From: Owenia fusiformis
Lineage: Eukaryota > Annelida > Polychaeta > Sabellida > Oweniidae
Direction of reading: 5' to 3'
Assembly (NCBI GenBank): GCA_903813345.2
Contig: CAIIXF020000007.1
Coordinates: 18,957,564-19,021,563, forward strand
Length of the DNA: 64,000 nt
The notes beneath the pieces are model-generated. The model was not told where the DNA came from, searched no databases, and worked only from the letters and a program-made list of their open reading frames with translations. Below are positions 4,018 through 64,000 of this stretch, piece by piece (the first letter of the stretch is position 1; each line of letters begins with the position of its first letter). A program made the translations under genes and the position numbers.

Positions 4018-7000
4018 TCAGTTATATGTGATAGTCCTCTCCTGTTTACAACTGCACTCATTACAACATTGATTTTCAAAGTAATTTAAGACTGTGTCTA
4101 TTTTCACTTTCAACCATTCAACCTCATCCCTTAGTACCGCAACCACAGTAGACATTTCATGAGCTACAATATCCTGTAATATTTTGCCATATGATTTACA
4201 GTGCTTGTCATACTTATATGGCCATGTGAGGAGGAAAAGAGTCACAAAATGAGCGTCTGTTATCCTTGAAATTAAGTGATGTAATTCAGAGTTGTTATTT
4301 GCACACTCTTCATCGTAATCTCTTGGATAAATTCTTCCAATTTTTTTAGCTGATTTCACCGTATCACAAACTTCCAATGTTTCTCTGACACATTTAAATA
4401 TCGTAACATTTTCCAATGCATCGATTATATTGTTTATCGTGGAGGAATACTCGGAGTCCATCTTGACTGAGCACATTTCTAATTGAGTGGTATAGAGATA
4501 ATGTGATGCTTCTAAAATATCAGCTGCGATTAGTACTTGTCTGACCGATTTCTCTATGACATCATCACTACTTGGGCTGTGATTGGCTAATGGCATGGAC
4601 TGGAACCAGTTTGTTAAGCGTGTGATAAATTGATTTATTGTTGAGAGAGAGTCATATGAAGGTAGAGTAACGCTTAGACTCGTCGAAGGTCGAAATAACA
4701 TCAATGGTTCTACCCCTTCTTTTTTCTGCAGGATACAGTACCCACGTGGCTTTCCTGAAAAATACAAGTAGATTAGAGCTGAGTGATCTATGATTTTACT
4801 CATACACACATTTGATTAGGGTAAAAAAATAAGCAAGGGAAATCCAAAAAATGAGAAAAATTTAGGCTCAAGAAGATATAACGACCTGCATATTGAACAT
4901 TCATTCACAAACATAAATTCTATCCTCACAAGGCATCAGCCTCTCAAACTTGAACCAAAGGATAGGGATCGATATGGAGAACTGAATTCAACAATGTTTT
5001 TCTCTTAAACCAATCATTGAAAACATTCTGTTAAAAAACATGGTATTTTATCTAATGTTGACTGATTGACAACAATTTAAGGTGAAAATTATTTAGAAAT
5101 ATTTTATATAACTGTTTTTGTTAACATTTTTTGTGCAATTGTTTTTGCTCCTTTCTACCAATTCTTGAGAATGAAATAAAATATCTTTCCGAACCTTGTT
5201 GGAACAAAATAGCATTTACAACATGTTTTAGACCTCTCAATATTAAAGTTATACAAAGGAATTTTTGGTTGATTCTAAAAAAGTATTCAAAAATTAAAAC
5301 AAAATCCCCCCAAAATAGATAAAAATCAAGAAAAACCTTATATTTCATTAACAAGATACTTTTTTAAAATCAACCAAAATTTCCTTTGTACAATAGACTA
5401 GATGCGAATAGAAATAATCTTGATTTACGTCATTAAATATTCAAAATTCAGTCAAAGTGATGTCATATTTGAAATCTACATGTAAAAGTACGTCTAGAAA
5501 ATGGTTTCGAAGATGGTTTATCAACTTTGAAAATTTAATATTTTTGAAAATGTGACTTCTAGCTCGGGTTGATTCCTCATAGACCCATGTTACAAAATCA
5601 CAAAAAGTTAAATATCTTTTCTTGTATTGGACAGATAACATTTTCTTTTACTGGACATATTTTAATTTGCATAACTATTAGATACATAAGGGTAATATAA
5701 AAATTTAGCCACTACAACAGATGTAATTTAAGTTAAAGGGAACTTTCTAATATACCCGCCATGTTATCTGACCCGAACGAGCCACCTGGTGGCGAAACTG
5801 GTAACTACCTACTCGCATCTGCGTTATTAGAAAATTGAGAGACCTAAACATGTTGTGTTTATGTCGTTTTGTACCAATGAGGTTCGGAAAGATGTTTCAT
5901 TTCACTCTGGAAACATGATACCAAGAACAAAACAAGTGTTTGATGTGTTTTTTAAAACAATATAGATGAAAGTATGTATATCTATTTCAAATTATATTGT
6001 TACCATTCAAAAGATTGCCATTAAATTGACAGTTTGTAAGATTTTCAGAAATTTTTGAAGACTGGTTTAAGAGAAACGTGTGTTCAAAAAGTTCGCCATA
6101 TCGATACCCATTCTCTGACAACTGATATCTAAGTTACCAATAATTACATTATTACATTATTACATTACCTTGAAACATTAACATATGGATGAATTATTAG
6201 CTTTTACATATCCCTACTCCAATATCATTCAATAAAATGACAAACTGCTATTTACCTGTATCTTTATCAATTTCTCCCATTGCTTTCCATAGTATATCTA
6301 GTTTAACCCAGTGAGGAGGATATTTAAACCTTGCTGTGTCAAGGATCAAAACAAGGTCCCTGCCAGGATGGTACCCACCAATGGGAGAAAAGTGGCCGGA
6401 TCCAGTCTGATGTAGAATTGGTCGAGAATATGAACAGACGACAAAGCGATCATCAACTTTGGTCATTGACTTCACAAACTCCCTAAAACTGTCCAAATTG
6501 TTAGTGGTGTTCATCTCTGTATTTAACCTGACTGTTTTAACAGTTAGCGTATTGCAGTCAGCGAGGCAAGAGAATTGGTCAAGTGTGATGCCCTGTTGAG
6601 TTATGACATCAATGGGTATGCAGCAGTCTAGCATGTTCTCATGGTACCACCTCCACGGTCCCTTCCAGACTCTCCCTGGGTCAACACTGAGGGCATTCAG
6701 GACCATTACCAATGTAGAAAGGCCACAAAATGCTGGTTCATCCTGTGTTCTGGAATCAAACAAAGGTTCACATATTTAACATTCACATCAAATTCAAACT
6801 AGATTACAGTAATGTCAAGGCATGGCAAATCCCATGGAGTGTCATACTATGTCATCATGACATCATCATCAACTTCAGTTAAAGTCAACTTGTGACATCG
6901 AAGAATGGAAAATGAATTATAGAGACTGTCATATTAAAAATCAAAAATTTTAGAAAAGTGCCAGTCAATATATTGGCTATAAATATCTGCAATATCAGAA

Positions 7001-31677: not shown

Positions 31678-33510
31678 CTAAGGTGGTACGCAATAGAGGT
31701 AACATGTCAGCCATCACTAAAGCTCTGGGGCATTCCCTCCTCTTGATGACACTGTTATTTGTAAAGATCTCATAGCAAGTTAAGCTTACAAGGCTACTTT
31801 CATTTTCATATCACCATTTGTCGCTCAACTGGATATTTGCTTGGACCAAGACTATTTTCTTCATTGGTAAATGTGTTAATAACAAGATTTTATTGCAGAA
31901 AATAGTCTTCCTACTACTATGATGATTTTAAAACATTTTGAGATACCAACAACCTAACAGGAAGTTCTACTAGAGAGTACTTACCGAGATCAGAGTGGAA
32001 AAATCGTAAAAATCTAACTTTTCTGCAAAATCATGACCGATGAATGGTCATTGATAATTTCGATTTTGAGTTCATGAAACACCACCACTCCTAGCCATTG
32101 TAACAATCAGCACACACTTTAACTTATTCAGCATTCTTCAATCGCAATTCACTGCACATCGATAATAATAGCGCAAATATGGTGCTAAAATGTACAAAAC
32201 AGAGATAAACAGTTACCACTAGGGCATTTTAAACGTTCGCATAATCGATGCATATTGGACTATTTTTATTCATCCGCAAAGACGGGAGTGAAATGCCGGG
32301 GAATGCATCATAATGATGTATGATGTTATATGATGTACTCACATGATAGTATTTTATTAAAACCTCAATGATAAATGTTTTCAAAGACATAAATAACAAA
32401 TAGGTGTGCAGAAAAAGAAATATAACTTCCAAATTATATTCTACGCGGATAGCGATTTGACACTTGCTGTGTTCCTGGGCACTTCCGGGTAATATTTTGT
32501 TTTGTTTACAAAAATGTAAACATCATGATCATCATTGGATTATTAATATATATCAGAGTGACATTTTGAGTCATGACCATGGTGAAAAAACACATACTCG
32601 TGCTGTTGGTAAAACTGAAGAGATTACGCGTTAATCAGTAGCCTAGTGAAAATAAGGTTAGTGACTTTTTGAAATTGTAGTGTACACTGTATAAATGTCA
32701 TCCACTTTTATTGATCACCTAAATACAGTTTGGAACATAAATAAATGACAGGTGGATTTGCTGAAGTGACGATTTCCCATGTCAAACAAGAAGCCTTACA
32801 TCAGTGGATGGGATTATACAAAATGTAAAATATACAAATTTTAAGGGATATGTATCGAAACAATATTGGAAATTGTGGGCTTTCAGACGACCATGGTTAG
32901 GAAATGGTCATAGAAAACCCAAGTGTAATTTATTTTTGTTCCCAACTATACATGTAAATGTGGAGTTGATTTGCGTTTTTTCTTAGTTTTGACATTTGAC
33001 TTTAGCAAATCTCCCCCACTACTGTTTTCCCAGGGAAATATGAAGGAATAAAAATCGTTTTGAATCGTGCATTACATGAATAAATCATATTGTCCCCGGG
33101 AAAAAATCATATTGGAGCATATTAAATGAAAAAATCGTATTGTTCCCGGGAAAAATAGTATTTGAGCGTATTAACCTATTTTATGTTTCCCGGCCATTTT
33201 TAACTTTAAATTTAATTTAACTTCAAACAATGTGCATTTATTAATATAATGTTTTGCATTATCCAAATGTAACATTTTAGACAGATGTATTATGGAATAA
33301 ATAGGTTATTTCTGGTCGGGATTGAATATCATTGAATATGGGTTCTATTCCGAGGAACAATATGATATTGATCAAAGGGTAATATGATATTGACCGAGGG
33401 AGCGCAGCTCCTGATTTTGTTAAGTATGAGTATGAGTTTTATTAAGTATGAGATTTTGTAACTTTCTTTAAAACGTGATTTTATTTAGTGTTGAAAACTT
33501 TTCAGAGGGA
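31678..33510. other. Region upstream of the RING gene
   Basis: No recognisable coding sequence. A possible untranslated first exon could end at the donor-like 'aaaataaggttagt' near 32656. At 33090-33170 'tattgt(c/t)cccgggaaaaa' recurs, and at 33350-33410 'caatatgatattga' recurs; these short repeats may be part of an unclassified element. The acceptor 'aacttttcag' ends at 33505. Confidence 0.4.
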
Positions 33511-35673
33511 ATGGCTGAAGCAACTTATTCTGCAGAGCAGGTAGGCCAGCTCCTGCAGTGTCCCGTGTGCCTAGACAGATTTAACAATCCCAAGATCCTA
33601 CCATGCCAGCATACCTTCTGTGTTTCTCCATGCTTAGAGGGACTTGTTAATCAATCATCAAGAAGCCTTAAATGTCCAGAATGTCGCAAGGAGCACAAAT
33701 TACCATATGCTGGTATTAGTGGATTTCCAAATAATCTGACAATATCACGCTTTCTTGACTTGCCTGCACAGTCAAGGGAACCACCTGAGGAGAATCGTAA
33801 TCTTAGCCAGAACCAATGTCGTGTATGTGAAAATGAAGCTGACTTATCTAAATGTGTACATTGTGATAAAATGGTCTGCTCCTCATGTAAAGAATCCCAT
33901 GTGAGTGAAATGAGACTTGAAATAGGACGACTTGTGAATCAAATAAGAAATGGATTACCAAAAGTGAGTGAATCAATAAGCACTGTTGAAAACAAACAAG
34001 AACAATTGAAACAAATGTGTGAAGGTGTCAAAAGTGAAATAAATAACTCTGTTGAAAGACACATCCGTGATTTAAAACAAAGACAAAAGTTACTTCAGAG
34101 TGAACTTGATACATTTTTGACTGGTGAGCAAAGATCACTGCGGTTACATCAGGAGTCATTAGAGGTTCAGTTAGCAAGTATTTCAAGCTCTTGTGACTCT
34201 ATTGAGACAAAGCTTAACACATCTAACAATACCATCCAAGACTCTGCTCTTATAGCATTTAAAAACCAGTGTAATGAGTCCATGGAACAAATTAAAAAGC
34301 TTGATCAAAACTCAGCTCCTCAACCAAAGCCTGTCCATTTCAAAGCAAATGATTCACCCCTGCAATCCTGCATTTCAAACTTTGGGGAAGTGACCTGGGT
34401 TACACCCTCAAGTAATACAAGATCTAATGATCAAGTCCAACGCATTCTCCCTTTAGACACTGTTGAATCAAACACATTTGGGAATAACATGAATAATATT
34501 TTTCGATCTGAGGAATCTCTTGTACCAAATAATGCAAGGTCAAGAAATACTATTCCACCCACACGAAGACTTGATTACATGTTTAATGCATCTGAATTTG
34601 ACTCTCGGGGAATAGGTGGCACTTTACCAGCTCCACGGCAATCACATCCTCCAAGTAGAGCAAATCAAACTATAGGTGGCGGTAATGGTCCTCGCAGGCG
34701 AGATGACCGTTACCGGGACAACTTCATCCATCAGAATCAAAGCAGCATATTTGGTGGCTATGACCCATTTGCTCCAAGTTTAGATAATCCATTTGGTAAT
34801 GAAACTCACAATCGAATTACCACGTCATGGGATTCTCCTTTAGGAGGGACTGGTAGTCGACGAAACAATCAGAATAACCAAGACTCTGGGTACATAAGCT
34901 CTTGGAATGCAGGAGCTGGAGCTACCACGCCAACACCGAGACATACTAATCAATCATCCAATAATACACGACAGACCCATTTACCCAATCCAAGACAGAG
35001 CGACATCAGTCCAAGAACAAATGTTGCAACACAGAGAAGAATTGCAGCAGCCCAGGCAGCACAAAGAAGATCAGAGAACCAACAAGTGCAAAACAATACA
35101 ACCCGTAATGAAGCTGTTAATAGAACCAGGAATCAACATGCTTCATTAAATCCAAATATTCAAAACAGAAACCCAGCTAGTAATGCCTCCTCAACAACAA
35201 ACAGTAATAGGAATGAAGGAGTACCTTCCATTGCAGATAATAGAAATGCCCTTGCTAATACAACCACCAATGTGACAAATAATAGAAATACTATTAACAA
35301 CAGTTCCAATGCAACAAATACATTTGGGAACAGTCCAGGATACAGACTTGGTACAAGGTCAGAGAACACTTCTCAAAGTTCCACAAACCAGTCCTCTAAT
35401 TCCGCACCTCCGCCAACGCATAATGATATAGAAAACCAGACTTTACCTGTGCGAAACCAGAACAGTGGTTCATCAACTTCAGCTCCTACAATGGTCAGGA
35501 GTGGGACATTTGTTCGTGATGAAGGACCATCTAACTCCAACAGTAATAACATGCCAAGGGTTACAGACCAAGGAATGAGTTTTGAAGTTAATCTTGGAAC
35601 TTCAGCTGGAGCTACAAACCAGCCAAGAAGAAACAGAGGACCAAGAGGTGTTGCTTTCAATGTTGGACTGTAA
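33511..35673 (+). CDS. RING / B-box-like coiled-coil protein, likely E3 ubiquitin ligase
   Basis: 720 aa in a single coding exon. The RING is Cys17, Cys20, Cys32, His34, Cys37, Cys41, Cys55, Cys58, with the unusual C-x3-C spacing 'PCQHTFCVSPC' seen in thin/NHL-1-type TRIM proteins. Next come 'FPNNLTISRFLDL' and a second zinc knuckle (Cys103, Cys106, Cys115, Cys118, Cys123, Cys126, His130), then a predicted coiled coil (about 135-260). The C-terminal 400 residues are Asn/Ser/Gln/Arg-rich and low in complexity. No NHL repeats follow. The RING implies ubiquitin transfer; substrates are unknown. The start is ATG 33511, six bases after an acceptor-like 'ttttcag'; the frame extends upstream to an ATT at 33475, which is not a start. 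Poly(A) signals lie at about 35773-35795. Confidence 0.88.
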   Translation: MAEATYSAEQVGQLLQCPVCLDRFNNPKILPCQHTFCVSPCLEGLVNQSSRSLKCPECRKEHKLPYAGISGFPNNLTISRFLDLPAQSREPPEENRNLSQNQCRVCENEADLSKCVHCDKMVCSSCKESHVSEMRLEIGRLVNQIRNGLPKVSESISTVENKQEQLKQMCEGVKSEINNSVERHIRDLKQRQKLLQSELDTFLTGEQRSLRLHQESLEVQLASISSSCDSIETKLNTSNNTIQDSALIAFKNQCNESMEQIKKLDQNSAPQPKPVHFKANDSPLQSCISNFGEVTWVTPSSNTRSNDQVQRILPLDTVESNTFGNNMNNIFRSEESLVPNNARSRNTIPPTRRLDYMFNASEFDSRGIGGTLPAPRQSHPPSRANQTIGGGNGPRRRDDRYRDNFIHQNQSSIFGGYDPFAPSLDNPFGNETHNRITTSWDSPLGGTGSRRNNQNNQDSGYISSWNAGAGATTPTPRHTNQSSNNTRQTHLPNPRQSDISPRTNVATQRRIAAAQAAQRRSENQQVQNNTTRNEAVNRTRNQHASLNPNIQNRNPASNASSTTNSNRNEGVPSIADNRNALANTTTNVTNNRNTINNSSNATNTFGNSPGYRLGTRSENTSQSSTNQSSNSAPPPTHNDIENQTLPVRNQNSGSSTSAPTMVRSGTFVRDEGPSNSNSNNMPRVTDQGMSFEVNLGTSAGATNQPRRNRGPRGVAFNVGL

Positions 35674-49375: not shown

Positions 49376-49636
49376 TTCTCTCTTACGAAAATTAAATCAT
49401 AATTACATCGATTACCTGCGCAATTCTAATTTATTCTCGATAAAACCTCCAGATTTTAATAACTTACATACTTACTTCTAATAATCAACGACATTTAAAT
49501 TATAGCAGGACCCCCCTTTTGGGGATAAATCAGTTTTAATTTTCGTATTTTTCAAACTTCGGTTTTCGCGGTATTTTTCATATTTTTGCGCGAATTTTCT
49601 TATTTTCAGCTAACGGGTTTTACCTACCTCTTCGTC

Positions 49637-52600
49637 ATGGGTTTCCAAGGATATGGATTGCTCCTTCTCTGCTTTGTTTTCGCAGTCCAGTCATTTTTCT
49701 GTGATCATGGAAACCACTTACCTTCAACAGAGTCATACACACAGTTGATGCAACTGCGACGTTTCCATAAGATTGTTGGCTCTCGTGGAATCCTTCACAA
49801 GAAATCTTCCACACCACTGCTCTTCCTATGTCTTATTCTTAGTGGTGACATCCACCCAAACCCAGGTCCTGTTAAATTTCCCTGCGGTATGTGCCACAAA
49901 GCAGTTGCCAAGAATCATCGCGCCCTTGAATGCGATGAATGCGGTACATGGGTACACATCAAATGTGGCAATGTTTCCCCTGCTGAGTACAATGTTTTTC
50001 TTGAAGCGGGCAGTTTCACTTGGATCTGTCCTGGATGTGCCCTACCTAATTTTTCCAACAGCTTCTTCAATGACTCCACTCTTTCTCATTCCTCGGTAAC
50101 AAACTCCTTCAGCGCTCTCTCTGATCTTGACAATTCGTCATCATCATCTGATTCTACCGAATCAGAACCACCGAGGCCGACTGCACGAAAGAGGCGAAAC
50201 CAGGTTCGCCTCATGTCTATCAACTTCCGCAGTCTAATTAGTCATGAGAAGCAACTACACCTTCAACAACTAATTGAAACTCACAAGCCAGATGTCATCA
50301 TAGGCTGTGAGACTCACCTGGACAACACCATCGACAGCAAATGGATATTCGGTCAAGACTACCTTAGCCCACCTCCATACAGGAAAGACCGAAAGAAAGG
50401 TGCTGGCGGTGTCCTAATCGCAGTCAAAAGTGACTTCATATCAGTCGAATATGAAGCGACAGCTGATTGCGAAATCATATGGTCCAAAGCATCTCTATCA
50501 AATGGGGACATACTGTTTGGATCCTTCTATCGTCAACCAAACAACGATACTGGTGCTTTGGACTCGCTCCAAACATCCCTCGATAAACTTTATGCTAATG
50601 GTAATACACATATGAAAAATATCTTCCTATGTGGTGACTTCAACTTACCAGACATCGATTGGGAGAATGGAACTATAAGGCCTAATTCTCAATATTCTAA
50701 TGATCTTAATGAGAAGATGATTACAATAACTGATGATCATGGCCTAACCCAACTAGTCAAGGAACCAACTAGACAAAATAACATCCTTGACTTAGTATTC
50801 ACTACATGCCCAAACCTCGCAGAAAGAATCTCGGTGGTTCCGGGCATGAGTGATCACGAGGCAGTCCTATGTGATATAAACCTAAAAATGAAAATTCAGA
50901 AAAAGAAGCCTCGTAAGGTCCACATATACAAGCGGGCAGAATGGACTGGACTTAAAGAGACTCTACGATCTAAGTTCAGCGAATTCAAAGAGAACTGTGA
51001 AAGTAGATCAGTTGAAGACAACTGGTCCTCCTTCAAATCTACATTAATATCGTCAATCAATGAGCATATTCCAAGTAAAACTCTAAGTGGGAAATTCAAA
51101 GTACCCTGGATTACCACCAGGATACTGAGAATGATCCGACAGAAACAAAGACGATATAATGTTGCCAAACGTTCAAATGAACCTCATCATTGGCATAAAT
51201 ACAAATCACTACGGAAATTAATCCATAGTGAAATTCGTAAAGAACATCAGCGCTACATCAACGATCTGCTTGACATTGATGAAAGCGAAATCATAAATGA
51301 GAATGTTCAGCACAAAGGCATTACCAAACGCTTCTGGAGCTACATAAAGTCTAAACGCAAAGATGCATCAGGTATCAGCGTGCTGCGTAACAAAGATGGC
51401 GACGAAATAACAGACGCCGCCCAGAAAGCAAACATCCTCAATGACCAATACAATTCTGTATTCACAGATGAGGATGCCACTCTACCGACAATGGTACCTA
51501 GTCAAATTCCTGAAATGCCAAATATCAAAATTTCGACAAAAGGAATTCACAAATTGCTAACTGGCCTAAATCCATCAAAAGCCACTGGACCCGATCTTAT
51601 TCCGACTAGGGTCCTGAAGGAATGCAGTGACAGCATATCACCATTCCTTCAAATAATTTTTCAACAGTCTATCGATGAAGGCTTAGTGCCTTTGGACTGG
51701 AAACATGCCAATGTTACTGCTATCTACAAAAAGGGACGAAGAGATGAGGCTGTGAATTACAGGCCTGTATCTCTGACGTCAGTTCCATGTAAAATAATGG
51801 AACATATTATATTCCATCATGTTATGGCCCACTTTGACCTCTATGAAATTCTAGTAAAATTCCAACATGGATTCAGGTCAAAGCACTCATGTGAAACACA
51901 ACTTGTCAATACAATAGAGAATATAGCTCGGGCCCTCGACAACAATAAACAAACAGACATGTTGGTATTAGACTTTTCCAAAGCGTTTGACACGGTGGCT
52001 CACGAACGCCTCTTGCTCAAACTCGACTATTATGGAATTCGCAATAATAACTTGAACTGGTTCAGATCCTGGCTTGTGGGAAGATCACAACAGGTAGTGC
52101 TCGATGGTGAATCAAGTTCAAAAACTCCAGTAAAATCAGGAGTTCCTCAAGGAACAGTTCTTGGACCACTCTGTTTCCTTGTTTATATCAATGATATGGG
52201 CAATAACCTATCATCCTCAGCCAGTCTTAAGCTTTTTGCCGACGACAGCCTTTTATTCATGACAGTCGAAAGCAAGCAAGATGCATTAACACTACAGGAG
52301 AATCTTGATAAACTGGTCTCCTGGGCATCAACATGGCAAATGAAATTCCATCCATCAAAATGCTATGTGCTAAATATTCACAAAGGTAAATCCCCTATCA
52401 TGCACAATTACACCATGCTAGGGGAAAACCTTAAGTCGGTAACACACATCCCATACCTAGGAATTGACATCACAAATAACTTACGCTGGACTACACATAT
52501 TCAAACTATTGTATCCAAAGCCAATAAGGTGCTTGGATTTCTCAGGCGCAACCTCCATCAATGCCCTGAAAAAGTGAAGGCTCAGGCGTATAAGTCACTA

Positions 52601-53056
52601 GTCCGGCCTAATTTAGAGTATGCCAGCTCGGCATGGGATCCATACCGACAAAAAGATATTGATATGTTGGAACAGGTACAGAGAAGAGCAGCCAGGTTTG
52701 TAACCAAATGTCACTCAAGGGAACCAGGCTGCGTCACCAAAGCTCTTCAAGACCTACAGTGGGAGCCACTGAAGGAGCGTCGAGAGGCTGCTAGAGTTTT
52801 CCTTTTCTACAAAGGAAAGCAGAACCTAGCAGCCATCGACGTGCCTCCATACTTCCGCCAACAGATCAATACCAACACTAGGTTGTATCATCCTTCTAAG
52901 TTCATACAACCATCAGCTAGAACGGATGCATACAAATTTAGCTATTTCCCTAGGACAATAGCTAAATGGAACACTCTACCTGGTGACATCTTAGACTGTG
53001 ACAGTCTAAGTAGTTTTAAATCATCATACTATGCCTATGTCAATAACTGCAATTAA
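49637..53056 (+). CDS. Retrotransposon polyprotein: 2A-like motif, PHD finger, APE endonuclease, reverse transcriptase
   Basis: 1139 aa, intact. The first ATG in frame is 49637; the frame extends upstream only through a TTG. Residues 1-20 are hydrophobic and signal-like. Residues 69-78 (SGDIHPNPGP) resemble a 2A peptide, with His in place of the usual Glu. A PHD finger follows from Cys83 (Cys83, Cys86, Cys99, Cys102, His107, Cys110, then WICPGC). The APE endonuclease shows 'CETHLD', 'GSFYRQP', 'CGDFNLPD' and 'SDHEAVL'. The reverse transcriptase shows 'NYRPVSLTSVPCKIMEHII', 'DFSKAFDTVAHERL', 'GVPQGTVLGPL' and the catalytic 'FADD' (867-870). No RNase H is seen. This supports a target-primed CR1/L2 clade element. 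Confidence 0.92.
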   Translation: MGFQGYGLLLLCFVFAVQSFFCDHGNHLPSTESYTQLMQLRRFHKIVGSRGILHKKSSTPLLFLCLILSGDIHPNPGPVKFPCGMCHKAVAKNHRALECDECGTWVHIKCGNVSPAEYNVFLEAGSFTWICPGCALPNFSNSFFNDSTLSHSSVTNSFSALSDLDNSSSSSDSTESEPPRPTARKRRNQVRLMSINFRSLISHEKQLHLQQLIETHKPDVIIGCETHLDNTIDSKWIFGQDYLSPPPYRKDRKKGAGGVLIAVKSDFISVEYEATADCEIIWSKASLSNGDILFGSFYRQPNNDTGALDSLQTSLDKLYANGNTHMKNIFLCGDFNLPDIDWENGTIRPNSQYSNDLNEKMITITDDHGLTQLVKEPTRQNNILDLVFTTCPNLAERISVVPGMSDHEAVLCDINLKMKIQKKKPRKVHIYKRAEWTGLKETLRSKFSEFKENCESRSVEDNWSSFKSTLISSINEHIPSKTLSGKFKVPWITTRILRMIRQKQRRYNVAKRSNEPHHWHKYKSLRKLIHSEIRKEHQRYINDLLDIDESEIINENVQHKGITKRFWSYIKSKRKDASGISVLRNKDGDEITDAAQKANILNDQYNSVFTDEDATLPTMVPSQIPEMPNIKISTKGIHKLLTGLNPSKATGPDLIPTRVLKECSDSISPFLQIIFQQSIDEGLVPLDWKHANVTAIYKKGRRDEAVNYRPVSLTSVPCKIMEHIIFHHVMAHFDLYEILVKFQHGFRSKHSCETQLVNTIENIARALDNNKQTDMLVLDFSKAFDTVAHERLLLKLDYYGIRNNNLNWFRSWLVGRSQQVVLDGESSSKTPVKSGVPQGTVLGPLCFLVYINDMGNNLSSSASLKLFADDSLLFMTVESKQDALTLQENLDKLVSWASTWQMKFHPSKCYVLNIHKGKSPIMHNYTMLGENLKSVTHIPYLGIDITNNLRWTTHIQTIVSKANKVLGFLRRNLHQCPEKVKAQAYKSLVRPNLEYASSAWDPYRQKDIDMLEQVQRRAARFVTKCHSREPGCVTKALQDLQWEPLKERREAARVFLFYKGKQNLAAIDVPPYFRQQINTNTRLYHPSKFIQPSARTDAYKFSYFPRTIAKWNTLPGDILDCDSLSSFKSSYYAYVNNCN

Positions 53057-54052: not shown

Positions 54053-54766
54053 ATTCTTTTGGTTTGTATGATCTGGCCCTCCCAAATTAGATGGATACCT
54101 ACCTTCAGCTACCACACCATGTAGAGCATATTTTCATAAATATTTCAAAATCACATCAATTAAATATAAAGTACAGCCTCATTAGCCTTGGGGCAATCTG
54201 TGTCAGGTTTGCTCTTTTGGTTTGGTTTATTTAGAACACACCTGTGCATATTATACCAATGTAATAGCTACAGAGCAACTAGCCAAACCTTTTTGGTCCA
54301 GTAATCTATTACTGATGTCGTACATCTAAAACATTTCAGAATCAGGAAGTAGATTAATGGGTCAGACTGGTTTGGTAAGAATACAACACAATCCCAAATT
54401 ATGCGCATAGTTTAGGCCAGCTGAAAACTATGTGTATTCTGAATAGTTCCTGTACAACATATTCATGAATAATCCTTCCTTGCTCATGGAAGTCACTGTG
54501 TTCTTGTACTGTTAACTCTATAATCGTAATGCTCCCTTTTATTTTTATAAGTACCTGATATTTTGAAACTAATCATCACTTTATAAGTCAGGTTCAGGGG
54601 TTTCATACTAAGTAGGTATCACAAGAGAGGTTTTCAGTGATCTGCTCTCATCATAATTGCTTACTTTAGCTAATTAGCTACCCTAATTTTAGTTAGATTA
54701 ATTTGAAAGGTGAGAAAGATACTACATGTACTTAATTATTTTGTATCTTGTTTTGCAGACTCCAAA
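54053..54766. other. RACGAP1 5' region
   Basis: Probably a 5' intron or leader: an acceptor 'tcttgttttgcag' ends at 54758, just before the first coding exon. No coding sequence is recognised here. Confidence 0.4.
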
Positions 54767-57700
54767 ATGAGTACACCTAAATTATCACTCGTCGCAGCTT
54801 TTGACGACCTGACACGAAATACGAAAGTCTTGACAAAGGGCATTGAACATGAATTCTACACATTTGTTTTGAATCAAGAGGAGTGTCGTAAAAAGTGGCT
54901 TGCTGCTGAAGAAGAAAATCACAAGCTCAAGTTAAAGCTAAAGGAATTAGAGGGTGGATACCAGGCATATGAGACAAAGCTGCGCCATGCTCGAAGTCAA
55001 ATTGACCATGAGTTGAAAAGACGTAATAGAGCAGAACAAGATAGAGATGCCCTGGTATGTTTCCAGAATAAAACCATTATTCAAAAAGTCTTGTTTTTTC
55101 ATGAAATAGAAGGAATAGAGATTGTTAATAGTCAATTTCTCAAAAAGGCTTCTAATATTTCGGTTTTATTCCTTCAATAAGCAAATATTTGGGGCTGGCC
55201 GCCAGTATAAGAATTTACTATTTGTTTCCCGCCTAATGTTTGACATTGTATGTTTGTTACTTACTTTTTTTTTACTTTTTTACTTTTTCAGGAGAGACAA
55301 ATTGCATTGATCCAGGAACTCTTAGGTAACAATGGAAATAATAGTAAATTGGATGAGAAGGACAGAGAACGTCTACACTTTCTCAGTAGTTTCAGTACAA
55401 CACAACACCACAACTCTCACCATTCTCCCCGTAGGGCAGGGTAAGTAATACAAAGAATTATTTGATTCAGGGTGGTCAAAAAATGGAAACCCTGCATTTT
55501 CCTAATATCTTTGTTGTTTTAAGGAATTTCTGCCTTATATTTCACACATTTGTACATCATTCAATCTCCTACCACCCTACCAAATTTCAAGACCATCAGA
55601 CTGACAGCACTTTGAATAACATGCTTCAAGTTTGGCTATCATCGCGTTATTAGGCAAACATGCATAGTTGTCAATGGGCCGAATGCATTCCTCAGCTGGT
55701 ATGGCCTGAATGATACGGATGATCTCACTTTTGAGGTTTGTGATTGTCCTGAGGTCATTCTCATACACTTTTTCCTTGCCATATCACTACAAGTAGGGAC
55801 ATTTTGGACGGCGAGTGCAGGTGGCCCGACAGCGCAATAGTGCCCACTAGGGCATGTTCTGTAAAGTGCTGTAACATTGTGACTATCAATCTGATAGTCA
55901 TGAAATAATATAAGCTGGTAGGAAATTGAATGATGTACAAAATATCAGGGAGTTAGTTCTTAAAATGACAAATATATGAGAAAAATGGTGTAAGGGTTTC
56001 CATTTTTTTAGACCACCCTATAGTATTATTAAATATTAGTGGTGCTGCCCAAATATCGAAAGTTGTAAAATGCCTTGATTTCATTAGGCTCTTCGGGTAA
56101 ATGTTTATTTCATCAGTGAAAATGTTATTTTTTGAATGATTCAAGTGAAAGGTAAACCAAAAATTCATCTTATTGAAGGTTGGGTAGGATCAACCATGAT
56201 GAAATTACTTCTATTTTTGAATTATATATCAGAGATGCCCTCCCCCATGTATATTTCATTTGATTTGAAGAAATGCTTTGCAGGTTACTCATCATAGTTG
56301 ATCAAAAATTCATAAATCACATGTAATGCACTTACAATAGATTATTTTTCTTTTTTAGACTGGATACAATTTGTGAAACATCTGCATCGATTCTCTCTCC
56401 ATCAGACATCAGTGAGATCTATGACAAAACAGATGATGGTAATCTCGAAATTTCATTTTTGCGCAGTGGTAAAAGATGGAAGCGACCATCAGCGCCACCT
56501 TTTCCTGATGAAGAGATGGAAATGGAGGCCAGTCCACCAAATACAAAACGCAGAAAAAGTGGAGCAGACAAGGAGGTAATTGGCATTTTAAATTTGCTAG
56601 AAGTTTTTACTATATTTATAGATGTATATTAATATTAAGATGCTCACCTTACCTGGTCACGTCCATATCTGTGAAAAGTTTAGAATTGAAAAGCTGAAAA
56701 TTGAATCACAAACTGAAAAGAAACCTGAAATGAGAAAAAGTTATTTGCCTCTTTTACTTGAATATTTCTTTGGTATAAGGATATACAAGTATTAATGCAT
56801 TATGCTTGAATTTTGATTTAGCAAGCCTGAGGATGTTATCAACTTTGTCTTTCTTTTGGCTTTAATCACATTTTAGCGGGAATTTACCTTGTCTCAAAAC
56901 TTTCAGAACTCTGCCATCACCACCACTACCACAGTTAAGGTGCCCCAGGATGGAGGTCCTATTGAAGCCACACATGAGGTCTCAGCAAACCCTACTGAGA
57001 AAAAATCACGAAAAAACAGAAAACGTTCAAAATCAGCTGGAGAAATCAAACTCCTCCAACAACACAGAGGCAGTGCAGATTCCACTGATTCATTCTGGGG
57101 TATTAAAAATAACATCAATAACAATCATGCTGTGGATGACCAGGTTCTACGCAATAGGAATTTAAATTCACCAGAGTCTCAGCGCTCTCCATTGATTCGA
57201 CACTACAGCTCTGCAGGAAAATTAAACAACAGGGCGCATATCTTTGTCTCCAAAACAGTCATAAGGCCTGAGACATGCAATCCAGTAAGTAATAGTTGTA
57301 ACAGAGTACTGTAAAACCTGTATATCCCAACACCTCTCTGACCTGAACATCTTGATGTGATCACTTTTTCTCAGACCTAATATTATAATCTCAGATTTTC
57401 TTCCATGTTTAAAATCCTTGAAATGTGAATGCTTGATAATCAAAACAACTTTTTGCCAGTCCAGTCGTTCACAGATTAAACAGATTTTAGTTATTTTACT
57501 TCCAGGAAACCTAATTTCCCCAAAAAATAAATGTTTTTTAAATATCTCTTTACTAGAGATCTAAAAATCCATATATCTAAGGAACCCATGTTGATTTTGA
57601 TCAATTTATATAGCTAAAATGTGTCAACAATTGTGCATTTATAGTGTGGTAAAAGAATAAAGTTTGGCAAACCTGCTATGAAGTGCAGAGACTGCAAGGC

Positions 57701-60700
57701 AACTTGTCACCCTGACTGCAGAGACCAGGTGGCGCTACCATGTGTTCCTAGCAGTGCAACTCCAGGAACTGCTGGCAAATTAACAGGGGTGAGATGTAGC
57801 TACTGTTGGTATAGTTAATGTTTAAAAAATTCCAATATGTATCTGATGTTATAACTTTCAACATTTTGATTTAGTTGTATTTCAGACTGTGAAACATGCA
57901 ATTAAACTTACGTTTTATTCCAGGGTGTGATATCTGACTACACCCCTACAGACCCCCCTATGATCCCAGGCCTAGTCGTTCACTGCGTTAATGAGGTAGA
58001 GTCCCGGGGCATTCAAGAAGTGGGAATATACAGAGTGCCTGGGGCAGAGAGGCAGGTCAAAGACCTCAAAGAAAAGTTTCTCAGAGGAAAAGGAATGCCT
58101 AATTTGGTAAAAAAATTACATTTTATATAAAACCTCAAATAATCCAACTAAACATTTTTTATAATAAAATTCACACAAAATCTTTTGATAAGAGCGTTTT
58201 TCGTAAATCAAATATGTTAATTTACACCATGGTCTGTTTTCTACAGGTGGTTTGTTTATTTTATTCATCTTAATAATACAAATTTAATTATATTGTTTTT
58301 CAAGTTGTTGCATAAGTTTTCATTTGCTCTCTCACCTTATTATTATGTGTCTATTGTATTCAGTGTTGTGCATTGTTTTTTGCAGACTGCAATAGATGAC
58401 ATTCATGTGGTATGTGGGTGCTTGAAAGATTTCCTAAGAAGTCTGAAGGAGCCATTGGTTACATACAGTCTGTGGAGAGACTTTGTCAGTGCAGCAGGTA
58501 GAGAACATCATATGCTTTTTTACTTTAAATTTGATGGTTGATCTTTGTTTTATCATTTTTTAGTTCTCACTTGAGTTGATCTCCAGTATACAAATGTTTA
58601 TCGTTTGCTAATGTATATTATCGCTTGATTTAGTTAAGTTACATGTATTTTCGCAAATGCTTCTCAGCTCAAGTCTGTAATGTATGAATGAATATGTTCA
58701 ATCAAAATACTTCATATTTTGCTTTAATTTTTTTAAAGTTACCTTCCAATTGCCTGAGTGATATTTGTGCTATTTGATATAGATCTACAGATTAAGAACT
58801 GAACATGTCATGTTATGTGTTCTTCTTGCACTTTCAGAGCGCAATGACCAGGATGAGTGCTTAAGTGGGCTTTACCAAGCAATAAGTGAATTACCCCCTC
58901 CTAATAGAGACACCTTAGCATTCATGATCCTACATCTACAGAAGTAAGTAATTATTCAGAAAATAACTTTGTTTACTCGGGGTTTTGGATGGTTGTGGAA
59001 AAGTCTGGACAGTCCAGGAATTTCCCCTAAATGGCTAAAGTGGTCAGGAAATTTTACAGTTTTGACAGAAGATATTTTAAGTCTGAAAAATAGGCAAAAG
59101 AAGAGAAATGCCATCAACACAAAATTCAAATTTCACATGTTATGTGAAAGAGCTCTGTTCATTCACTTTGTTGAAATTAATTCAATTCATGTTTCCAGGA
59201 TTGCTGAGAGTGCAGAAGCTAAGATGCCAGCAGCTAATCTGGCCAAGGTGTTTGGTCCCACTATGATAGGCTACTCAACACCAGAACCTGAACCAATGCA
59301 GATGATCAATGAGACAAAGAAACAAGCCACTGTAAGATCTTATATATTAAAATGTTTGGTGCTATAAAGTGCCCTATGTAAAGGCATTAGACTAGTCATT
59401 TTCTGTCTTGGCCATTTGAGTTTTTCAGCATGTATATATGAAAATAACATGAGAATGGGACCATACGTCCATACTTCCAACTTTGAGCAGTTCTGAAGTG
59501 GTGGTTATTTATTAAACAATGGTTGAAAAAATCAACCTGATCTCCACCTAAGTATTACTTATTTACAATTTTTGCAGGTTATGGAGGGTCTACTGTCAAT
59601 CTCTAGTGACTACTGGAGCAACTTTATCAATGTAGAAGAAGAGCCCATGTACATAGGTGATGGCAGAGATACCCCTCAGACACCAGAGCCAAGACAAGGT
59701 AGGCGCCCATAAGTATCTTTGACAAAAGGGACAATTTCAATATATGGCATACTATTGTTTGATTCACATCATACACATGTCGTCTTGTAAGTTTAACCTA
59801 AAACTGAGAAAGGGTTCCAGTGATAAATTGTATGTGCCTAATGTGTCACTAGGCCTAAACTTGAATTTGTGAAAAATACCTGAATTGAATTTTCAATATT
59901 TTTTTATTATGAAATGGATAAACCATTAATTTTGTATTGTATTTAATATTAAACTTGTCGGTGCATGTGTTCTATTCTAGGCCCCTCCTACCGCAGTATG
60001 CTAGGCCCTGTGGGCAGTGCCAAAACAGGCAAAACTACACCAAGGTTATAACACATTACATGGACAAATAATACACATGTACAGTACTTGGTCGTCTCAG
60101 CTTGTAAATGATTCCCAGTACTATTCGAGCTGAAAAATTCACAATCTGAATAATATATGAATTTCATGAGAAAATGTAATGAGAATTATCAATTTGATAT
60201 GACCAAGTATTTTACTTGTATATGCACATGCACAGTGCTTTGTTTCTCTGGAGAATATGGTACACCCTGACCTCCATTCTCTTATATATATGTACCTCTT
60301 ACTGTGTGTTAAAACACCAAGCAATAAGAGCTGGTCAATATCTTAGATGCGAGTAGAAATAATCTTGCTTTACGTCATTAAAAATTCATAATTCAGTCAA
60401 ACTGGTATCATATTTGGAATCTACATGTAAAATTACATCTAGAAATGTGGTTTTGAAAAGAGTTTATCAACTTTGAAAATTTATTTTTCTTTGAAAATGT
60501 GACTTCTAGGTCGGGGGGATTCCCCATAGACCCTATGTTGTAAAACCACAAAAAGTGAAATATCTTTTCTTGTGTGGGGCAGATAATATTTTCTTTTACT
60601 GGACATATTTTAATTTGTATAACTATCACATACATAAGTGTAATATGAAAAGTGAACCACTAAAACTGATGAATATTCAAGTTTAAGGGAATTTTGTAAT

Positions 60701-62418
60701 ACCCTGCTATGTTATTTCCCCGAATCAGCCACCTGGTGGCGAAACTGTTAACTACCTACTCGCATCTGAGTAATTCATTTGACATTTCCTCAAACAAAAG
60801 CTAATTCTCAGGCATACAATTCAAAAAGTTTTAACACAGAGGTTAGAGGTAGATTATTTTCACTATATGTTTATTCTGAATATATGGCATTTCATAGCAG
60901 CAGGTGATTGCATTCATGATTCAGAATAGACTGTATGCATGCACTATTCTACATTCTACTCTCCCAATACCCTGCATGATCAAGGGAACTGGTCAATGTG
61001 TCTTTTTGTGAATTTAATTAGATAAATGCTTCAATCCCATCCCACGTTGGTTAAATCCCATCAAACATTGAAGTTAGATAGTCATCCACACTATGTTTTT
61101 ATTATTTTTTCAATACGAAAACTTTTTCCCCTCCTCCCCTTCCTGATGTAATTAGTTTCATGAAAATGACACATTGATATTTGACTGGGTGTAAAACAAT
61201 ACTATCCTTAGTGAATACTGTCCTAGTTTGTATTGGGACTTACCTGGCCCTAACTCTGTAACTCTCCCTATCTCAAATTAACTCAAGTCACCATGTAAAT
61301 GTAAGGGAATCTGCATGGTACTGTACAGTACAGTACAACATAGTACTAAGGCAGTATTCACTTTTACACCAGCTCCTTCCCTCCAAACACACAACACGAC
61401 AGGATTGTATTTAATGCTTTGGTGCTAACAGTTAGGTGATGGGGCTTTATTGCAGTGTTGCACAGCATGTTAGGCCCTGTAGGTACCCCATCGTCAGCTG
61501 AATTCACCAGTCAATATTTGCGCAGTACTAATAAACGTGAAGGTGGCTACTTCACTCGTACTACACCAAGGTAGGGGGTGTACTCATACCAATCTAAATG
61601 ATCAACCAAAACAAGAATTTCACAAATTGTTCAATCCATATATTAACAATAAACATAAGAGACTGCACCTGGCAGTTGGTAAGTAAAGAAATGAACATGA
61701 TTCAAACTTCCCAGTGCAAACATATCAAGGGGTAGATTGATTGCCAGTAAAATTGATAGATACTAGATAGTACATCTTCAACCCTAATTATCCCAACGAA
61801 CAAAGTTCGGTAGGGATATAGTGAAGCCCTCAAAATGGCTGCCTAGAGCAAGGGAAGAGTAGATTGTTAATATTACAGATTCTTGAATATAGGGTTTGTT
61901 GGGATTTGCTACTCCGTGGAGTTGCCGTTTTCTAGTTATGTAAGTCAGTGGTAAATGTATTACATGTAAAGACTAGCTTAATGTGCTGATGCTTAGCTTG
62001 TCATCTACAATTTTTAAATTAAAATTTCTTTTTCTAGTAAATGTAAAGCTTTGTACAATACTATATACCAAATAATAAAAATCATTTCATTAAAATATTT
62101 AAAATCTAGTAATATACGGATATTGTTTAAATTCTTTCAAAATAATATATAAAATCTCTCACATTCAATTTTTATGATGCCACCAAGTGGTGACATTGTT
62201 TTGGTCTCCATTTTTGTGACGGCGGTCGGCGTCTGACGTTCGGTATCTGTAAATGGCAGGTGGTGACATTTTGCATGTTAATGCCTTATTGAAATATACA
62301 GTCAGTTATTTGGAGTCTTTATTTAAATCAATATATTTCATTTTTCAGATTTGGGAGCAAGAGTAAGCAGTCAAATAAGAAACCATCTTACTTCTTTGCA
62401 TCGCCACATCTGAAGTAG
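54767..62418 (+). CDS. RACGAP1: Rac GTPase-activating protein 1 (MgcRacGAP/CYK-4), 12 coding exons with two alternative penultimate exons
   Basis: Centralspindlin subunit that bundles midzone microtubules and regulates Rho-family GTPases in cytokinesis. Exons: 54767-55054, 55292-55440, 56359-56575, 56907-57284, 57645-57788, 57924-58106, 58386-58497, 58838-58943, 59199-59331, 59578-59698, then either 59981-60044 (11a) or 61456-61570 (11b), and 62349-62418. With 11b the product is 671 aa (human 632); with 11a it is 654 aa. Domains: N-terminal coiled coil (about 30-105), '[13 protein letters not shown]', C1 zinc finger (His329, Cys342, Cys345, Cys358, Cys361, His366, Cys369, Cys377), and RhoGAP from about 393 with arginine finger Arg429 in 'GIYRVPGA' and 'NLAKVFGPT'. 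The C terminus is 'RFGSKSKQ...YFFASPHLK', as in vertebrates. Confidence 0.95.
55468..56022. mobile_element. Mariner-like deleted element in RACGAP1 intron 2
   Basis: Ends 'cagggtggtcaaaaaatgga' and 'ccatttttttagaccaccct' form inverted repeats, extended inward by 'tgtacatcattcaat' on both sides. On the minus strand a fragment '[15 protein letters not shown]' resembles the C-terminal tail of mariner-type transposases, but it is broken, so the element is dead. Confidence 0.7.
59981..60051 (+). CDS. RACGAP1: RACGAP1 alternative exon 11a
   Basis: In phase with exon 10 it encodes '[17 protein letters not shown]' and 'KTTPR'. The 3' border is weak (caag|gttata). If not spliced, it reads on to 'AGG TTA TAA' and gives a short protein ending in TPRL. 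It shares SMLGPVG and TTPR with exon 11b, indicating exon duplication. Confidence 0.75.
60345..60767 (+). mobile_element. MITE-like 420 bp element, copy 2
   Basis: Second copy of 5400-5820, with ends 'agatgcgagtag' and 'ctactcgcatct' and the shared interior 'gccacctggtggcgaaactg'. It sits between RACGAP1 exons 11a and 11b. Confidence 0.75.
61456..61570 (+). CDS. RACGAP1: RACGAP1 alternative exon 11b
   Basis: It enters at phase 1 and leaves at phase 2, like 11a, with a strong donor (caag|gtaggg). It encodes '[17 protein letters not shown]' and ends 'YFTRTTPR', longer and closer to the vertebrate arrangement than 11a. Confidence 0.85.
61786..61940 (-). mobile_element. Short family X copy, inverted, in RACGAP1 intron 11
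   Basis: It starts 'atcccaacgaacaaagttcg' and ends 'gttgggatttgctactccgt' then 'ggagttgccgtttt', the complement of the family's left end. At about 155 bp it is an internally deleted copy keeping both ends. Confidence 0.65.
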
Positions 62419-63487
62419 ACTTGTACAATACCCAGATACCACAAAGCATCATATCATAACAACACACCCACAACATGACTGGACCAGAGTCCATGACATG
62501 ATTTGATAGAAAACTGAACATAAAAAGATATATAGCTTATTAGATACTAAACACAAGTTCAAATAAAATGCTTATTCTGGAATATATTAAATGGATACCA
62601 CCAAAGATAGCAGCACATTTCAAATAAACTACATACACCAAAGGACCACTCAATCAACATTAAATCAGAAAATTGAGATCGACTAATATAGATGTGCAAA
62701 TTTTTGTGTTCGCATATATTTATTGAAATGACCATTGGTTTCTTTGGATGTGTAAAACAACATTCAACCTTTATAGAATGGTATATTTATGCAAGTCATT
62801 AGAATGTCATGCTTTTGTACTGATGCTTCCTATATCCACAATCCACTTTATAAGTACAGTTTAGTGCATAGCTCCAAAAGTGACCCATTTGGGTAATTTG
62901 CCCATGTAAATAAATGAAGGAATTCCTTGGGCTATGCATCAGACTGTATAAAAATAACATCATAACCTCAAGACTAATTAATTACAATACAGGAGTTTAT
63001 TTCTTGAAACATTCTTAGGAATTTCTTAAATTCATTACATCAATGTGGAAACTATGATGTCATAAAATGTACCGAAAGACTCAATTTGGGAATGTTTCAA
63101 GAAATTCTCCCCTTATTCTAAACATGGGGTAAAAATATTTTACCACATCATCTGTAGATAATACAAAATATATCTGAGACTAGAGCAAGCATCAACATAT
63201 GACCTGTGATCATTTATGTTGATTTAATATATGCGAGCTTCTGATGCATGTTTTCTTGAATTCTTATACAGAGTGGTCCAAAAATGCAACCCTCTTTTTG
63301 AATAATTTTTTTTATTCACAGGTAGCATTTCTAGGATCAATCTGTATTATTATCGAAGAATTGGAATTGCAATTTTGAATTTATTATTTTGAACAAAAAT
63401 ACCTGGAATTTTCAATTTGATTTTATAAATTGAATTTAAACCAAAATACTCGTATATTGTGTAAATGAACAAAAACATGCTATAAAA
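62419..63487 (+). other. RACGAP1 3' UTR and downstream flank
   Basis: 'caaataaaatgc' at about 62561 and 'caaataaactac' at about 62620 provide AATAAA-type polyadenylation signals 140-200 bp after the stop codon. At about 63270 a lone mariner-like end ('agagtggtccaaaaatgcaa') is seen without its partner. Confidence 0.5.
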
Positions 63488-63670
63488 TGCCTAGGTCACA
63501 CTTGTGCCGATTCATCGGCCGGTGCCCAGCCGATTGCAGTATTTTGTTCAAAATTGATTTCAACTTTCTTCAAGTCTGACCTCAAATCTGAGATTTGACC
63601 TTCAATTTTGAATAAAATACCCAATCCGCCAGGCGCCGGCTGATGAATCGGAGCAAATGTGACCTAGGCA
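63488..63670. mobile_element. 183-bp MITE with inverted ends
   Basis: Ends 'tgcctaggtcacacttg' and 'caaatgtgacctaggca' pair, and the pairing continues through 'ccgattcatcggccggtgcc' and 'ggcgccggctgatgaatcgg'. The centre is AT-rich. It could fold as one long hairpin. Confidence 0.8.
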
Positions 63671-64000
63671 TAATCTGTACAGGTGCTTTCGGTGTATGTG
63701 TTCATGATAAGCAGTAGGCACCCTGGTTTCAACAATTAAGATTTCATATACCCTTTGGATGAATACTACATGCTTTCAAATGATCTCTTAATCAATGGAA
63801 TAAAATATGCCAAATTCAGTACCTTTATTTAGATATTGTTGCTCATGTGGAGACAAAAGGTCCGAAGCAGTCAATATTTATAGAATGCATTGAACATTGA
63901 TCACATACATTCTGTATATACTTTCAAAAAGTGTATTGGCTGCCAACTCCAGTAGCTTTATGGTTTTACATTTGTTATAACATCATCAGAGCATCGTAGA

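What the first reader, a model, noticed from the sequence alone, without database searches (positions are those of the whole stretch)
59578..62418. Mutually exclusive penultimate exons in RACGAP1
Exons 11a (59981-60044) and 11b (61456-61570) both encode a segment running from SMLGPVG to TTPR. Both enter at phase 1 and leave at phase 2. Including both shifts the frame and gives a stop about 15 codons into 11b; skipping both shifts the reading of the last exon. So only one can be used for the conserved C terminus. 11a also has a weak donor and an in-frame stop 7 bases past it, offering a third, truncated isoform. The segment lies between the GAP domain and the C-terminal tail, where phosphosite-rich control of centralspindlin is known in other animals. 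I am not aware of this duplication being described.
Basis: partly seen in the sequence, partly recalled or inferred. Interest (0 to 1): 0.7.

Follow-up and report, generated by a model that had tools for sequence, protein, structure and literature searches.

The report
Duplicated alternative exon in worm RACGAP1
In what is probably a marine worm, the gene for a core cell-division protein carries two related versions of its second-to-last exon, and only one at a time fits the reading frame, so the animal can probably make two forms of the protein's tail, though no RNA was available to prove it.

Summary
The window holds a RACGAP1 (MgcRacGAP/CYK-4) gene of 12 coding exons. Between exons 10 and 12 lie two homologous, phase-matched exons, 11a (64 nt) and 11b (115 nt). 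Either alone gives a full-length protein (654 or 671 aa). Both together put a stop 69 nt before the last junction; skipping both gives a frame-shifted tail ending in the last exon. 11b is the ancestral type: it matches the human tail, including the equivalent of phosphosite T580. 11a keeps SMLGPVG and TTPR but lacks that site. Flanking intron similarity is erased except for a co-linear 12-mer, while the kept blocks differ by 4 silent changes only; neutral decay explains this poorly. Against use, 11a has the gene's weakest donor. New here: five UGCAUG (RBFOX) sites in the three introns around 11a/11b, none in the other nine, suggestive only. I favour a regulated, largely exclusive pair. The truncated isoform has little support. 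No transcript or relative could be examined. It is a new member of a known kind, tandem-duplicated exons.

The parts
54759..59331 (+). RACGAP1 coding exons 1-9 (54759-55054, 55292-55440, 56359-56575, 56907-57284, 57645-57788, 57924-58106, 58386-58497, 58838-58943, 59199-59331); ATG at 54767; a 5' untranslated exon further upstream was not sought
   Evidence: spliced translation; C1 and RhoGAP domains; best PDB matches are RACGAP1 chains
59578..59698 (+). exon 10, end of the GAP region and TPQTPEP stretch; its human counterpart contains the mapped APC-CDH1 degron 537-570
   Evidence: human sequence and degron from PMC3656054
59936..59947 (+). 12-mer ATTGTATTTAAT upstream of 11a, identical to 61404-61415 upstream of 11b and co-linear with the exon similarity (offset 1468 against 1469)
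59962..59967 (+). UGCAUG (RBFOX-type site) just upstream of the 11a acceptor; the aligned place before 11b reads GGTGATG
59981..60044 (+). exon 11a, 64 nt, short alternative penultimate exon; donor AAG|GTTATA
60335..60775 (+). about 440-bp high-copy inserted repeat with imperfect 20-nt inverted ends, in the intron between 11a and 11b
   Evidence: 40 near full-length matches at 94-95% identity elsewhere in the genome; inverted arms
60936..60941 (+). UGCAUG between 11a and 11b
60973..60978 (+). UGCAUG between 11a and 11b
61312..61317 (+). UGCAUG upstream of 11b
61404..61415 (+). 12-mer ATTGTATTTAAT upstream of 11b
61456..61570 (+). exon 11b, 115 nt, ancestral-type penultimate exon with the GPVGTP (human T580-like) site; donor AAG|GTAGGG
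   Evidence: human [13 protein letters not shown] in PMC3656054
62272..62277 (+). UGCAUG upstream of exon 12
62349..62418 (+). exon 12, C terminus FGSKSK...FFASPHLK and stop

Best explanation
A tandem duplication of the penultimate coding exon of RACGAP1 produced two exons that are used as alternatives. 11a is a diverged, shortened copy that selection still holds to the two conserved blocks SMLGPVG and TTPR. One exon per message is enforced mainly by reading frame (inclusion of both makes a premature stop 69 nt before the last junction, so decay is expected) together with splice-site choice, probably steered by an RBFOX-family protein through UGCAUG sites around the exons. Direction is a guess: three of the five sites lie between the exons, as in FGFR2, which would favour 11a over 11b in RBFOX-expressing cells; the site beside the 11a acceptor argues the other way, as in C. 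elegans egl-15. The 11a protein would have a tail 17 residues shorter, without the T580-type site, so it should respond differently to mitotic kinases while keeping the GAP domain and the exon-10 region that matches the human degron. Shown: exon anatomy, frames, homology, flank erosion, UGCAUG positions, an RBFOX-type exon in the genome. Inferred: use in RNA, exclusivity, decay, RBFOX control, effect on the protein.
For: Anatomy and frames. Homology above chance. Selection: block 1 matches at 17 of 21 nt, all 4 differences silent (0 of 300 shuffles score as high); block 2 is identical over 13 nt (5 of 300). The 46-47 nt between the upstream 12-mer and block 1, 60 nt upstream of the 12-mer and 60 nt downstream of block 2 are not clearly alignable (230, 31 and 170 of 300 shuffles reach the observed score). 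A simple simulation puts the chance that SMLGPVG and TTP both survive neutral change at 0.10, 0.011 and 0.0017 at 0.1, 0.2 and 0.3 substitutions per site, and at 0 of 20,000 at 0.5 or more. The co-linear 12-mer shows that the duplication reached at least 45 nt into the upstream intron. UGCAUG: 5 on the transcript strand in 59699-62348, 0 in the nine other introns between coding exons; 2 of 1,000 shuffles reach 5; against the rest of the window it ranks first of the 562 hexamers present at least twice, 5 against 0.48 expected. An RBFOX-type RRM exon exists in the genome, 78% over 36 aa, E 2.2e-11. Stop-to-junction distance 69 nt.
Against: No transcript and no related animal was examined. The 11a donor scores lowest of the gene's 12 (-3.49; 30% of the 3,252 GTs in the window score as high; recalled matrix). 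UGCAUG enrichment weakens against 12 other 10-kb pieces of the genome: with all of them P for 5 or more is about 0.07, 168 of 1,824 windows reach 5, and UGCAUG is not among the 8 top hexamers printed. Leaving out one satellite-like piece, P is about 0.002 and 16 of 1,672 windows reach 5, all in one other piece. Over the whole window, both strands, UGCAUG is rarer than in shuffles (30 against 41.7). The predicted directions of the single sites conflict. The kept blocks were chosen because they match, so the neutral-decay figures are optimistic; about half of 11a (11 of 22 codons) lies outside them. Plain DNA alignment of 11a with 11b is not decisive. The length difference (22 against 39 codons) is large for a substitution pair.
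Confidence: 0.6

Rival explanations
1. 11a is a decaying duplicate: it was an exon until recently, its donor has been damaged, and today only 11b is spliced in productive messages.
For: Donor GTTATA is the weakest of the gene; stop just past the donor; 11 of 22 codons of 11a outside the matching blocks.
Against: Blocks kept with only silent changes while flanks are erased; open frame, matching phase at both ends, acceptor like the others (11 of 17 pyrimidines; the 13 acceptors listed range from 8 to 15).
Confidence: 0.22
2. 11a is an alternative last coding exon: the weak donor is not cut, translation ends at TTPRL, and the message is polyadenylated in the intron, removing the conserved C terminus.
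For: In-frame TAA 5-7 nt past the weak donor.
Against: No AATAAA in 60045-61455; one ATTAAA at 60377, inside an inserted repeat, and two AATATA (60152, 60879), while 62419-64000 has five AATAAA. The identity of 13 nt across the donor is not needed for such an exon.
Confidence: 0.07
3. Both exons are cassette-like and not strictly exclusive: double skipping or double inclusion is used to switch the C terminus or lower protein level.
For: Double skipping ends in the last exon with a 21-residue new tail, so the usual decay rule (recalled) would not remove it; UGCAUG sites upstream of both exons could repress both.
Against: Would discard FGSKSK...FFASPHLK; the preserved phase of 11a favours substitution.
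Confidence: 0.11

Closest known systems
Tandem-duplicated exon substitution events / mutually exclusive exons (human set in PMC9741552; abstract and outline seen)
   Same: Adjacent homologous exons, same phases, only one fits the frame.
   Different: This pair encodes a tail segment outside the known domains, differs by 17 residues, and lies in a cytokinesis gene, whereas that abstract reports enrichment for brain and skeletal-muscle terms and several ion transporters; transcript proof is missing here.
FGFR2 exons 8/9 (PMC2880598, passages seen)
   Same: UGCAUG in the intron between two mutually exclusive exons, repressing the downstream one.
   Different: No ESRP-type element was looked for; sites here are also upstream of 11a and of the last exon.
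C. elegans egl-15 exons 5A/5B with ASD-1/FOX-1 (PMC3585155, passages seen)
   Same: UGCAUG in the intron upstream of the first of two alternative exons.
   Different: No second factor identified; direction untested.
KIF23 isoforms MKLP1/CHO1 (PMC4320110, passages seen)
   Same: Alternative splicing near the C terminus of the partner of RACGAP1 in centralspindlin (partnership recalled).
   Different: Presence or absence of 104 residues (exon 18), not a duplicated pair.

Membership tests
Tandem-duplicated mutually exclusive exons | neighbouring exons are homologous | tested here: met
Tandem-duplicated mutually exclusive exons | same entry and exit phase; length equal modulo 3 | tested here: met
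   64 and 115 nt, phase 1 in, phase 2 out
Tandem-duplicated mutually exclusive exons | inclusion of both breaks the frame | tested here: met
   stop 15 codons into 11b, 69 nt before the junction
Tandem-duplicated mutually exclusive exons | similar length (a criterion of exon-pair predictors, recalled) | tested here: inconclusive
   22 against 39 codons
Tandem-duplicated mutually exclusive exons | transcripts carry one or the other, not both | not testable with these tools
   no RNA data on hand
RBFOX-regulated exons | UGCAUG in the flanking introns beyond chance | tested here: inconclusive
   2 of 1,000 shuffles and first of 562 hexamers against the window; weaker against other genome pieces
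RBFOX-regulated exons | an RBFOX-family gene in the genome | tested here: met
   one RRM exon, 78% over 36 aa; the rest of that gene was not assembled
RBFOX-regulated exons | binding and dependence on RBFOX | not testable with these tools
   needs experiment
Docking/selector (competing RNA structure) exclusive exons | pairing between flanking introns beyond chance | tested here: not met
   duplex energy of the two introns around 11b is like that of shuffles, 20 of 40 as low; intron 10 was not tested this way
RACGAP1 (MgcRacGAP/CYK-4) | C1 and RhoGAP domains with RACGAP1 as closest solved relative | tested here: met
   C1 and RhoGAP over cut-off; PDB RACGAP1 best, E 9.9e-72
RACGAP1 (MgcRacGAP/CYK-4) | N-terminal coiled coil that binds KIF23 (recalled) | not tested
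   no coiled-coil prediction was run

The most novel reading that the evidence does not exclude
An RBFOX-steered exon switch exchanges the tail of the centralspindlin GAP subunit, producing in some cells (for example post-mitotic or germ-line cells with stable bridges) a RACGAP1 that lacks the T580-type mitotic phosphosite: a splicing-level control of cytokinesis evolved by exon duplication.
Probability: 0.2. Interest if true: 0.6.

Novelty: new member of a known kind. Interest (0 to 1): 0.4.

Why it matters
RACGAP1 is an essential gene for cytokinesis (recalled). A lineage that holds two tail exons, one with and one without a conserved phosphosite, offers a natural experiment on a tail of poorly known function. 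In human genes, exon substitution of this kind is enriched for brain and skeletal-muscle terms (abstract of PMC9741552), so a cell-division gene is an unusual place. If the organism is the annelid I suspect, transcriptomic profiling over its life cycle has been published (abstract of PMC9977687), so the question can be settled quickly.

Tried and rejected
Retrocopies or allelic copies that would show which exons are spliced: none found. This rests, where all 4 candidates were scored: 3 are exons of this locus and one, on C5, has E 8.2; that search did not report 11a itself, so short exons can be missed. cannot exclude copies, because only 40 of 6,292 first-look candidates were scored and the repeat filled them. 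Relatives in prokaryotic and viral contig collections: 72 and 9 pattern matches, none confirmed, as expected for an animal gene. Competing RNA structure around 11b: no better than shuffles. Idea that the alternative exon removes the APC-CDH1 degron: rejected, since human 537-570 corresponds to exon 10. Chance similarity: rejected. COX1 to place the organism: no match in the assembly. A plain DNA local alignment of 11a with 11b was not decisive (score 27; the best of 2,000 shuffles reached 29); significance comes from the peptide blocks, their ends and the phases. Tandem repeats, tRNAs and Rfam families: none (for 59578-62418; for the window).

Printed accounts. RACGAP1 with alternative splicing, isoform and exon: 40 papers, 15 listed; MgcRacGAP, isoform, C-terminal, phosphorylation: 65, 15 listed; RACGAP1 with 'mutually exclusive exon': 8, all listed; centralspindlin with alternative splicing and isoform: 20, 12 listed. 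No title or abstract start listed describes this pair. PMC6537309 names RACGAP1 among spliced human genes and counts one mutually exclusive event among its validated ones, without linking the two in the passages seen. The other seven papers I know from the listing only, so a human RACGAP1 event of this type cannot be excluded. Of six recalled human tail peptides searched, only [11 protein letters not shown] was found in print.
Full report
What is there. The window lies on contig C7 (39.8 Mb) of a 498-Mb animal assembly; contigs C1-C12 are 31.9 to 62.2 Mb each and hold about 477 Mb of it. Erythrocruorin-linker domains (Eryth_link_C; that the family is annelid-specific is recalled) occur on C6, 3 matches over cut-off. 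Owenia fusiformis has a published assembly of 505.8 Mb in 12 chromosome-scale scaffolds (PMC9977687, passages seen), so the source may be that annelid or a relative; this is inference. The gene at 54759-62418 is RACGAP1: Pfam C1 and RhoGAP domains and a RACGAP1 chain as best solved match, E 9.9e-72.

Exon anatomy. Twelve coding exons in either splice form, all with GT..AG borders, were joined. Exon 10 ends in phase 1 at 59698. Either 11a (59981-60044) or 11b (61456-61570) restores the frame into exon 12. The products have 654 and 671 residues. Both together give a stop (TGA 61499-61501), 69 nt before the last junction, far enough for decay by the usual 50-55 nt rule (recalled). Neither gives 21 new residues and a stop inside exon 12. 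Read-through of 11a ends after TTPRL.

Is the pair real homology? Yes. The peptide match ranks first in the window: 2,442 candidate exons counted, those overlapping 11b dropped before ranking; 45 against 37.5 for the next, unrelated one. It is not reached by any of 22,909 candidates in shuffled copies. A 21-nt block (17 matches in its coding frame) and a 13-nt block across the donor (13 matches) occur in the same order, and an identical intron 12-mer lies 45 and 52 nt upstream of the two exons, on the same diagonal as the first block to within 1 nt. A plain DNA alignment alone would not have been decisive.

Which is ancestral? Human RACGAP1 reads ...[24 protein letters not shown], within residues 554-583 (Table 1 of PMC3656054, passages seen). 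11b reads [23 protein letters not shown], 11a reads [24 protein letters not shown]. So 11b keeps the TP at the place of human T580, and 11a does not. T580 is reported as a phosphosite raised in tumours (PMC9695706, passages seen; I assume both papers number the same sequence). The rest of the human tail I know only from recall. The human degron 537-570 corresponds to exon 10 and is shared by both forms.

Is 11a functional? In favour: within the blocks only silent differences exist (4 in the 7 codons of SMLGPVG, none in TTPR), while the neighbouring intron is no longer clearly alignable (230, 31 and 170 of 300 shuffles as good in three flanking stretches). If 11a had drifted freely to the level of its flanks, SMLGPVG and TTP would rarely both survive (0.10, 0.011 and 0.0017 at 0.1, 0.2 and 0.3 substitutions per site, 0 of 20,000 at 0.5). 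Caveat: the blocks were singled out because they match, and the extent of the duplication is known only from the 12-mer. Against: its donor AAG|GTTATA scores lowest of the 12 donors with a recalled mammalian matrix, -3.49; the next weakest is 58106 at -2.02.

Regulation. On the transcript strand, UGCAUG occurs five times in the three introns around 11a and 11b (59962, 60936, 60973, 61312, 62272) and not once in the nine other introns between coding exons. Shuffles give 0.9 on average, 2 of 1,000 reach five. Against the rest of the window it ranks first of the 562 hexamers present at least twice, although over the whole window, both strands, it is rarer than in shuffles (30 against 41.7). Against twelve other 10-kb pieces of the genome the result is weaker: P about 0.07 with all pieces, 168 of 1,824 windows reaching five, and UGCAUG not among the top 8 printed; P about 0.002 without one piece made of a UGCAUG-bearing array, 16 of 1,672 remaining windows reaching five, all in a single piece. 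I therefore call it suggestive. An RBFOX-type RRM exon is present. UGCAUG steers mutually exclusive exons in FGFR2 and egl-15, and RBFOX2 affects splicing of ECT2, a partner of RACGAP1 (partnership recalled), in human cells (PMC10730836, passage seen). No structure-based mechanism was found around 11b, and the 1,411-nt distance speaks against steric exclusion.

Third isoform. The intron after 11a has no AATAAA; one ATTAAA (60377) lies in an inserted repeat, and there are two AATATA. I consider a truncated 11a isoform unlikely.

Conclusion. The finding stands as a sequence observation. The best reading is a regulated exon substitution in RACGAP1 with 11b as default (0.6). A recently damaged relic is the main rival (0.22). 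RNA junction reads would settle it.

Noticed in passing
window 49586-53056 (+): A LINE-type retrotransposon with one uninterrupted 1,156-codon frame carrying PHD, endonuclease and reverse transcriptase domains, ending 1.7 kb before the first coding exon of RACGAP1.
   Followed up: partly
window 60335-60775: A roughly 440-bp high-copy repeat with imperfect 20-nt inverted ends, 94-95% identical to 40 other near full-length places; only 40 of 6,292 first-look candidates were scored. It looks like a recently active MITE-type element that lengthened the intron between 11a and 11b.
   Followed up: partly
window 6248-6763 (-): An open frame, probably an exon, of a phytochelatin synthase gene (Pfam E 6.2e-71), a heavy-metal detoxification enzyme, in an animal genome.
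   Followed up: no
window 33475-35673 (+): A 732-codon open frame with an N-terminal RING finger and a long tail that looks Asn/Ser-rich by eye.
   Followed up: no
L020 (C11:10000001-10010000): A satellite-like array with common spacings of 70 nt, rich in TGCATG on both strands (98 and 43 in 10 kb).
   Followed up: no
window 60866-60887 and 61636-61657: Inverted arms of 22 nt, 91% complementary, flanking exon 11b; a related TCAATATATGGCAT lies at 59737-59750. They could loop out 11b, but the two introns as a whole pair no better than shuffles.
   Followed up: partly
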